Assembly (NCBI RefSeq): GCF_036172515.1
Contig: NZ_JAXKVW010000015.1
Span: 1 to 64,000, forward strand
Direction of reading: 5' to 3'
Origin: Flexistipes sp.
GTDB lineage: Bacteria > Chrysiogenota > Deferribacteres > Deferribacterales > Flexistipitaceae
DNA: 64,000 nucleotides
Shown here: one piece after another, positions 1-37,939 of the stretch
Position numbering within the stretch: position 1 is the stretch's first letter
Layout: every line of letters starts with the position of its first letter
Translations under genes and position numbers: made by a program
Notes under the pieces: generated by a model
Seen by the model: only the letters and a program-made list of their open reading frames with translations
What the model was told of the DNA's origin: nothing
Database searches by the model: none

Positions 1-296
1 CGTTTTAAATTCATCTGTGAGTACCTCTTTATTACAAGAGGATTCGCTACACTTACAAGATAACCACATTCCTTGCTCAAATGGGTTGCTAATCTTAAAT
101 GGTATACTCCCGTATTTTCCATCATAAAAAGAACTTTGGAAAAATCTATTTCCTTCTCCTTCTTAATAAAATCATTAAAAAATGATTTTACCGTATTTCT
201 TGTCTCATAACTGGTGTGGCTCTTACCGTCATATACGCTGATTGACAATGTTTCCTTGGATACATCAATTCCCACTACTTTTTCATAGCTCTTCAT
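1..296 (-). CDS. IS110-family transposase, N-terminal part (runs off the window)
   Basis: Reading leftwards from an ATG at 296-294, 98 codons stay open to the window edge, so only the N-terminal part is present. A GGGG-type ribosome binding site lies just upstream. The translation shows GIDVSKETLSISVYDG near residues 9-24, MMENTGVYH around residues 58-66, and VANPLVIKRYS near residues 83-93. These are the RuvC-like DEDD blocks of IS110 recombinases: the first catalytic Asp is in GIDVSK and the Glu is in the MENTGVYH block. IS110 enzymes excise and insert their element through a circular intermediate, guided by a bridge RNA in the group studied. The C-terminal Ser-containing domain and the right end of the element lie outside the window. 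Family assignment is firm; the exact group is inferred. Confidence 0.9.
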   Translation of the reverse strand, partial: MKSYEKVVGIDVSKETLSISVYDGKSHTSYETRNTVKSFFNDFIKKEKEIDFSKVLFMMENTGVYHLRLATHLSKECGYLVSVANPLVIKRYSQMNLK

Positions 297-534
297 CGTA
301 AAGCCCCTCATTTTTTTACTTGAGCTTTGCTTTCCTATACGCTATCATCGTAACACATGCAGGCTTTATGCCTAATGTTCCGTTCAGGTTTCGGAAAGCT
401 GAAGGTGGGGACAACATCTCGAACGGTTTCGTTGAACCAATGACAATCATGTCCTTTATCACCTTCAGTGCTCTGGAACCTTATACAACTTTTTAATAGC
501 CTGTTAAACAATTTTTCCTGCTTTCTTAATATAC
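297..534 (-). ncRNA. Candidate IS110 bridge-RNA leader
   Basis: This is the non-coding segment between the transposase start and the inferred element end at about 534/535. It folds into a nested hairpin by perfect short stems: 386-390 with 477-481, 399-407 with 460-468 (9 bp), 409-413 with 450-454, and 425-428 with 435-438. In IS110-group elements the bridge RNA is encoded in exactly this place, upstream of the recombinase in the same orientation. The internal loop contains ATGACA at 440-445, and the same six bases stand immediately outside the inferred element end at 536-541, as would be expected of a target-binding guide. RNA production and guide function are inference. Confidence 0.5.
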
Positions 535-665
535 GATGACATAAATTGTTGTCTAACATCCGCCTTGGGCGGATAAATAGAATGTAAACATATTTACTAG
601 TCTAAAAGACTGGTGCTAGCCGCAGTCATTCTTTCGAACAAAGTGAGAAATCTCTACCATATGAA
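535..665 (+). repeat. Variable-stem-loop repeat, copy 1, cut by the IS110 element
   Basis: The stretch starting at 535 matches the repeat at 37734-37860: GATGACATAAATTGTTG then a TCTAAC tract, a stem-loop, AAATAGAATGTAAACATATT, the hairpin around TCTAAAAGACTGG, and GCTAGC. Here the variable stem-loop (549-565) is ATCCGCC-TTG-GGCGGAT, whereas the 37.7 kb copy has a shorter one. Homology stops abruptly at 535, which defines the likely left end of the IS110 insertion. The region from about 666 to 807 holds nothing I can identify. Confidence 0.6.
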
Positions 666-807
666 ACGACATAGTGAATAAATATACAACTGTGCTTAAT
701 ATTGGGATATATTCATGCGTAAAAACCCCGATATTAAGATAAAGTATTGTCAAATAGCACAAGTACAAAAATTTTGGGAGGTTGTTAGAATAATTTCAAA
801 CATTAAC

Positions 808-37563: not shown

Positions 37564-37939
37564 TTTTAAGTGCTAAGGATTATGTTTTAAGACTTTTGAA
37601 TTACATAAGTACGTCATGTTATAACATATGTCAAAAGCCAGATTGACTTGCCTTTGATCCTTTCCTTAGTACTTAGTAAGTAGATACGCAGATACTATTA
37701 GTACATAGATAGAGATCCCTCGGCTTCGCTCGGGATGACATAAATTGTTGTCTAACAGCGATAGCTAAATAGAATGTAAACATATTTACCAGTCTAAAAG
37801 ACTGGTGCTAGCAGCAGGCATTCTTCCGAGTAAAACGAAGTGAAACCGAGGAATCTCTATCTTTATATAACACATATATCTGGGTAACTGCTTAATACTC
37901 AGCCCTTAGCCCTTAACACTTAGCACTTAATGCTTAACA
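37564..37939. repeat. Repeat-rich spacer after pyrC, including variable-stem-loop repeat copy 2
   Basis: At 37711-37860 a repeat unit begins AGAGATCCCTCGGCTTCGCT and ends GAAACCGAGGAATCTCTAT, ends that are imperfect inverted repeats. Inside are GATGACATAAATTGTTG, a short stem-loop AGC-GAT-AGCT, and CCAGTC-TAAAA-GACTGG at 37789-37805. At 37615-37635 TCATGTTATAACATATGTCA echoes the element at 34544. From 37895 to 37945 runs a degenerate tract of CTTAACACTTAGCACTTAAT-type units. No gene. Confidence 0.6.

What the first reader, a model, noticed from the sequence alone, without database searches (positions are those of the whole stretch)
297..534. Candidate bridge RNA in the leader of an IS110-family element
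The 238-base leader upstream of the transposase forms four nested perfect stems (386-390/477-481, 399-407/460-468, 409-413/450-454, 425-428/435-438). This is where IS110-group elements encode the RNA that directs target and donor recognition. The loop carries ATGACA (440-445), identical to the six bases just outside the inferred element end (536-541), as a target guide should. A six-base match alone can arise by chance.
Basis: partly seen in the sequence, partly recalled or inferred. Interest (0 to 1): 0.65.

Follow-up and report, generated by a model that had tools for sequence, protein, structure and literature searches.

The report
Bridge RNA of an IS110 element
The stretch in front of this broken-off transposase gene encodes an IS110 "bridge RNA", a two-loop guide that tells the mobile element which short repeats in the genome to jump into; near-identical copies in the same genus differ in just two guide letters and tend to sit in correspondingly different repeats.

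Summary
Window 535-318 (minus strand) is the left end of an IS110-group element whose transposase runs off the contig at base 1. All four guides are present. LTG TGATTGTCAT matches the left flank, RTG GTTCGAGATG predicts a right flank of CATCTCGA, LDG ACGGAACAT equals the right end of the element in relatives and own-genome contigs, and RDG GTTACGATG pairs with the left end. A covariance model from five sequences finds the RNA in all 46 related loci searched. Across 46 distinct sequences, all 31 pairs show compensatory changes (93.8% paired; at most 47% when slid). In 36 elements the five RTG bases after the AT core match the right flank at 163/180 positions (shuffled mean 65). The targets are REP-like palindromes GTCAT-NN-CGA. 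Within the genus, otherwise near-identical RNAs carry three RTG versions reading the CT, TT and TG palindrome classes. The circle junction creates a promoter. New member of a known kind (bridge RNA / seekRNA); the extra interest is a two-base natural retargeting series. Expression and activity were not tested.

The parts
3..311 (-). 5' part of the IS110-family transposase (103 aa; cut by the contig end). The start at 296 (MKSYEKVVGID, preceded by GAGGGG) is more likely than 311.
   Evidence: PF01548 E 7.8e-11; the full-length homologue L074 matches NF033542 'IS110 family RNA-guided transposase' and, by profile, IS621 8wt6 E 2.7e-50
318..473 (-). Structured bridge RNA (outer stem, target-binding loop, donor-binding loop)
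   Evidence: Covariance model R1 and 46 loci
470..473 (-). Outer stem, 5' arm GAGC (pairs with 322-325)
   Evidence: Helix 1 of A5: 4/4 pairs with double changes, 95.1% paired
322..325 (-). Outer stem, 3' arm GCTC
460..468 (-). Target-loop stem, 5' arm CTGAAGGTG (pairs with 399-407)
   Evidence: Helices 2-3: 9/9 pairs with double changes, 92.9-96.2% paired
399..407 (-). Target-loop stem, 3' arm CACCTTCAG
440..449 (-). Left target guide (LTG) TGATTGTCAT, core AT at 440-441
   Evidence: Matches left flank TGTCAT (541-536)
415..424 (-). Right target guide (RTG) GTTCGAGATG, core AT at 416-417; predicts a right flank of CAT-CTCGA
   Evidence: 163/180 RTG-flank matches over 36 elements; own-genome right ends include CATCTCGACC x3
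375..383 (-). Left donor guide (LDG) ACGGAACAT
   Evidence: Identical to the right end ...TTAACACGGAACAT of sister-genome copies and of 7 own-genome right ends
346..354 (-). Right donor guide (RDG) GTTACGATG, reverse complement CATCGTAAC
   Evidence: Pairs with left end CATCGTA (538-532)
393..398 (-). Donor-loop stem, 5' arm CTTTCC (pairs with 330-335)
   Evidence: Helix 6: 6/6 pairs with double changes, 95.4% paired
330..335 (-). Donor-loop stem, 3' arm GGAAAG
361..373 (-). Donor-loop apical hairpin AGGC(ATAAA)GCCT
   Evidence: Helix 7: 92.1% paired
528..533 (-). -10 element TATATT inside the left end; on the excised circle it lies 17 bases after TTGACT of the right end
536..537 (.). Presumed core dinucleotide AT at the left junction
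   Evidence: Shared by left end, right end and target
536..541 (-). Target half-site TGTCAT left of the insertion (part of a REP-like palindrome TGTCAT-NN-CGA)
   Evidence: Intact copies of this repeat read TGTCATCCCGAGCGAAGCCGAGGGATCTC
538..790 (.). About 250-base intergenic repeat family into which this copy inserted (uninterrupted relatives in L028-L034)
   Evidence: 88-95% identity over 160-264 bases

Best explanation
Window 535-318 (minus) is the left end of an IS110-group insertion sequence of about 1.27 kb and encodes its bridge RNA (also called seekRNA). Inferred mechanism, as shown for IS621: the element excises as a circle; the right and left ends then abut and form a promoter; an RNA of about 200 bases is made. 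Its target loop pairs with the two strands of a REP-like palindrome GTC-AT-NNCGA and its donor loop pairs with the circle junction ACGGAAC-AT-CGTAT. The DEDD/Ser recombinase exchanges strands at the AT core and inserts the element at the foot of the palindrome. Shown here: anatomy, covariation, guide-target and guide-donor matches, junctions, promoter consensus. Inferred: transcription, RNA-protein complex, recombination. The two RTG bases next to the core vary between otherwise near-identical copies (AG, AA, CA) and correspond to the CT, TT and TG classes of the palindrome, which suggests recent natural retargeting by point changes.
For: Left-end and right-end junctions in two genomes of the genus. 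Model R1, built from five Deferribacterales-type sequences, finds the RNA in front of the transposase in 46/46 searched loci, in Cloacimonadota and Bacteroidota too. 31/31 pairs with double changes, 93.8% of cells paired against at most 47.3% when slid. RTG positions 1-5 match right flanks 163/180 against 64.7 +/- 7.1 shuffled; positions 6-7 show no signal; LTG positions -4 to -6 also exceed shuffles. LDG matches the right end at 8-9 of 9 bases in most loci. Different guides go with different targets: G009 family 1 CATTTTTCTCAT|TCTCA, G112 CGTCAT|TGCGAGG. Handshake positions fit for the window: GT after the core in the target loop complements AC before the donor core; GA after the core in the donor loop complements TC before the target core (sequence). 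Split promoter at the circle junction: sigma-70 TTGAC[AT]-17-TATATT in G001/G009 and TTTG-20-TANGTTTG in 13 further loci, nearly all Bacteroidota. Catalytic D16, E65, D108, D111 and S252-G253 of L074 are invariant and align with IS621 D11, E60, D102, D105, S241-G242 (PMC11208158).
Against: No RNA data. The right end of this particular copy is not in the assembly, so its own right flank and RTG match are a prediction. Two of eight sister copies with a right end (L080, L076; RTG for TG) sit at CT/CC sites, and L081 (RTG for CT) sits at CC: explicable by guides acting in trans, recombination between copies or mismatch tolerance, but not shown. No Rfam family matches, which only shows that none has been curated for this group.
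Confidence: 0.95

Rival explanations
1. The leader is a cis-acting 5' UTR that regulates transposase translation (attenuator or sequestering hairpin) and has no guide role; loop matches to flanks are incidental.
For: It lies directly upstream of the transposase; for ISPpu9, another REP-targeting element, the transposase is reported to be regulated by two small RNAs and the secondary structure of its 5' UTR (PMC8450116, abstract).
Against: Guide bases track DNA outside the element over 36 loci and equal the element's own two ends. A regulator would not need this. A dual role is not excluded.
Confidence: 0.03
2. The loop/flank identity arises because GTCAT is simply abundant in this repeat-rich genome (chance or repeat-driven coincidence).
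For: The genome holds about 100 GTCAT-NN-CGA palindromes, so a short GTCAT match alone is weak.
Against: Matches persist in elements with unrelated targets (L082 TTTTTCTCAT, L173 GTATTTTCAT, L168 TAGA, L127 CAACA) and exceed shuffled pairings of the same guides and flanks. Even in the 20-locus REP subset, positions 1-2 match 34/40 against 16.1 +/- 3.1.
Confidence: 0.01
3. A relic: this copy is dead (truncated by rearrangement, not only by assembly) and the RNA is a fossil.
For: The transposase frame stops at the contig start, and contig C3 ends at the same base of the element.
Against: Eight left ends and seven right ends in the same genome all stop at contig ends inside the element, as expected of collapsed near-identical repeats. 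The sister genome has intact 342-352 aa copies.
Confidence: 0.05

Closest known systems
IS621 bridge RNA, IS110 group (PMC11208160, PMC11208158)
   Same: RNA in the left end upstream of a DEDD/Ser recombinase; target loop then donor loop; LTG/RTG and LDG/RDG sharing the core; handshake bases; REP targets; sigma-70 promoter across the RE-LE junction.
   Different: Core AT instead of CT; RTG pairs over five bases after the core; targets are GTCAT-NN-CGA palindromes; transposase distant (profile match to 8wt6, E 2.7e-50).
seekRNA of ISEc21 / IS110 type (PMC11187229)
   Same: Non-coding region upstream of tnp yields a guide RNA with matches to each target strand; natural redirection between relatives is reported there (transposases 72% identical).
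   Different: Here redirection is between copies of one element whose RNAs differ at only two adjacent guide bases.
ISs that target REPs (PMC1525189); ISPpu9 (PMC8450116)
   Same: Insertion at repetitive extragenic palindromes.
   Different: Different palindrome family; here the guide RNA that explains the specificity is identified.

Membership tests
IS110-group bridge RNA system | DEDD RuvC plus Transposase_20 recombinase with catalytic Ser | tested here: met
   PF01548 and PF02371 in L074, NF033542 above cut-off, catalytic residues invariant. In the window itself only the RuvC part is present.
IS110-group bridge RNA system | Structured RNA encoded in the left end, upstream of tnp (IS110 rather than IS1111 layout) | tested here: met
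   Model hits upstream of tnp in all 46 loci; covariation
IS110-group bridge RNA system | Two internal loops, target then donor | tested here: met
   Helices 3-5 and 6-7; window 415-449 and 346-383
IS110-group bridge RNA system | LTG/RTG complementary to target strands and covarying with flanks | tested here: met
   (family level). For this copy LTG met; RTG is a prediction, as the right flank is missing.
IS110-group bridge RNA system | LDG/RDG complementary to the RE-LE junction | tested here: met
   ACGGAACAT and CATCGTA
IS110-group bridge RNA system | Shared core dinucleotide, no long target duplication | tested here: met
   AT present once at each junction and in intact sites of the same repeats. 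An empty orthologous site of the same locus was not obtained.
IS110-group bridge RNA system | RNA is transcribed and bound by the recombinase | not testable with these tools
   Only promoter consensus at the circle junction
IS110-group bridge RNA system | RNA-guided recombination | not testable with these tools
   Needs an assay
IS1111 group | RNA in the right end, 7-17 bp subterminal inverted repeats | tested here: not met
   RNA is upstream of tnp; only about 17 bases lie between the tnp stop and the right end in L074
Any Rfam family | Score above gathering threshold | tested here: not met

The most novel reading that the evidence does not exclude
The two RTG bases beside the core are a fast-evolving switch: one element lineage moves among classes of a REP palindrome family by one- or two-base changes in its guide while the rest of the RNA stays fixed, and copies are guided in trans by each other's RNAs, so a genome carries a small swarm of guide variants.
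Probability: 0.5. Interest if true: 0.55.

Novelty: new member of a known kind. Interest (0 to 1): 0.42.

Why it matters
It adds a bridge RNA with an AT core from a lineage far from IS621 and gives a natural series of guide variants (CT, TT, TG) on one scaffold. That lets guide specificity and retargeting be studied in genomes rather than only by design. It also explains how the element stays in intergenic palindromes. The lineage-matched split promoter (sigma-70 type or Bacteroidota type) suggests that switching the RNA on after excision is a conserved part of the cycle.

Tried and rejected
Single-protein scan of genome contigs with the 103-aa fragment found nothing; an alignment query worked. 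MAFFT + RNAalifold on 40 leaders recovered only the donor apical hairpin, because stems were shifted by a column; a covariance model fixed this. A search for empty orthologous sites of sister copies gave mainly repeat matches and no clean empty site. The window's glnA region maps to G001 only from query base 314 on, with the flanking repeat not co-linear, so it gave no usable empty site. Linking RTG variant to right flank inside the own genome failed because contigs break at RTG (window 419-423) and again near the right end. RTG class versus target class within the eight sister copies alone is too few to be significant. Loci whose right end was not found (L114, L120, L123, L146, L164, L171, L172, L174, L183) were left out of the flank test.

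Full report
Observation. The transposase is on the minus strand (311->3, PF01548), so the RNA is read from 473 to 318. The window begins at base 1 of contig C15 of a 2.47 Mb, 31-contig genome. The transposase is cut by the assembly: contig C3 ends at the same base of the element, and other contigs end inside the element.

Ends of the element. Eight left ends in the own genome share ...CTTTCTTAATATACG-AT-GACA (plus strand; one reads AT-GTCA) and diverge outside. The sister genome G001 (closed, 2,526,590 bases) holds ten copies, eight of them with a right end. In transposase orientation the left junction reads GTC-AT|CGTATATTAAG and the right junction TTAACACGGAAC-AT|NNCGA. Element length is about 1,275 bases. 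Seven own-genome right ends read CACGGAACAT followed by CTCGA (3), TTCGA (3) or CCCGA (1). L075 has a damaged left end.

Targets. Intact copies of the repeat around the window insertion read TGTCATCCCGAGCGAAGCCGAGGGATCTC without a break. A pattern search finds 100 matches of GTCAT-NN-CGA...TCTC against 7 for the reversed control. In 92 of 98 the NN pairs with the N'N' before ATCTC, so these are REP-like palindromes in classes TG (38), CC (16), TA (15), CT (9), TT (7), CG (7), TC (5).

Structure. A model from five sequences (A3, R1) hits upstream of the transposase in all 46 searched loci, with E from about 1e-14 to 3e-5 outside the training order. The broader search gave hits, some weak, in most of 58 loci. 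On the 46 distinct sequences, 93.8% of cells pair, 470 cells carry double changes and all 31 pairs have at least one; slid versions reach at most 47.3% and 85 cells. The alignment was fitted to the structure, so it leans that way. But stems were also found sequence by sequence without a model: CTGAAGGTG/CACCTTCAG in the window, CCTAATGTGGAGA/TCCCCACATTAGG in L091, GAAAGGAAGG/CCTTCCTTTC in L111. No Rfam family covers these RNAs.

Guides. In 36 elements with a right end located through the donor guide, RTG positions 1-5 after the core match the right flank at 163/180 positions against 64.7 +/- 7.1 for shuffled pairings (0 of 20,000 as high). Positions 6-7 show nothing, so the guide is about five bases long beyond the core. 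LTG positions -4 to -6 also exceed shuffles; the positions nearest the core are nearly invariant and uninformative. Examples with unrelated targets: L082 TTTTTCTCAT|TCTCA, L168 TCGGTCAT|TAGA, L127 |CAACAA, L161 |AGAAC. The donor guide LDG equals the right end at 8-9 of 9 positions in most loci. Two-base handshake complementarity, described for IS621 (PMC11208158), is met for the window on both loops (sequence).

Natural guide variants. The 156-base RNAs of the window and of sister copy L080 are identical except for the two RTG bases after the core (AG against CA). Own-genome copy L021 has AA there and one further change at the outer edge of LTG. These read CT, TG and TT targets. At species level the flanks follow: own genome RTG AG and AA, right ends CT 3, TT 3, CC 1, none TG although TG is the commonest palindrome; sister genome RTG AG and CA, right ends TG 4, CT 2, CC 2, none TT (palindromes of the sister genome). 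Six of seven own-genome insertions lie in CT/TT, which are 16 of 98 intact palindromes: about 1e-4 by a binomial (my arithmetic; it assumes that intact sites represent those available, and the RTG of most of those seven copies is unknown). Copy by copy in the sister genome the link is incomplete: L077, L078, L079, L075 and L074 match, L081 has one mismatch, L080 and L076 do not match. Guides acting in trans or recombination between copies are the likely reasons (inference). Several own-genome contigs break at window 419-423, exactly at this variable site, which suggests guide polymorphism independently.

Promoter. Joining right end to left end gives TTGACT-17-TATATT (G001) or TTGACA-17-TATATT (G009) and, in 13 further loci, nearly all Bacteroidota, a perfect TTTG-20-TANGTTTG. 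The upstream box lies in the right end and the downstream box in the left end, so it is complete only on the circle. IS621 has a sigma-70 promoter there (PMC11208160). That TTTG/TANNTTTG is the Bacteroidota consensus is from my own knowledge. Some integrated copies, L074 among them, reach a similar score from the flank.

Verdict. It is an IS110-group bridge RNA: a new member of a known kind. Natural redirection is already reported between related elements (PMC11187229). What is added is the fine scale (two bases, one scaffold, one genus), the AT core, the palindrome classes, and the lineage-matched junction promoter. Transcription and activity are inferred. The identity of G001 and of the window's genome as Flexistipes (Deferribacterota) is my guess from genome size and gene content and was not tested.

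Noticed in passing
window 536-790; L028-L034, L036-L039: A roughly 250-base intergenic repeat family, many copies, ending in the GTCAT-NN-CGA palindrome; the window copy is split by the IS110 element.
   Followed up: partly
own genome, 98 places; window 37712-37739: REP-like palindromes GTCAT-NN-CGA...N'N'-ATCTC in at least seven NN classes, often in pairs or clusters.
   Followed up: yes
L114:2250-2400 (Pontibacter pamirensis): The left part of the element is repeated in tandem: one copy appears inserted exactly at the LTG/core of another copy's bridge RNA gene, as if it had targeted its own guide (or an assembly artefact).
   Followed up: no
L120:2148-2479 (Polaribacter marinus): Two bridge RNA copies in tandem; the second element's left end sits inside the donor loop of the first.
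   Followed up: no
L041/L057 (own genome C16 about 1.9-3.1 kb): A second, distant IS110-family transposase (about 410 aa), single copy, only weakly similar to the window's.
   Followed up: no
L082-L089 (G009): IS110 copies sit inside a longer palindromic element with ends CTGGAGTCACCCCATTTTTT...AAAAAATGGGGTGACGCCAG, which looks like a non-autonomous element used as target.
   Followed up: partly
L181, L163, L170, L127 (gut and rumen Bacteroidales): The core appears to be GT rather than AT in this branch (right end ATAGTTCGT).
   Followed up: no
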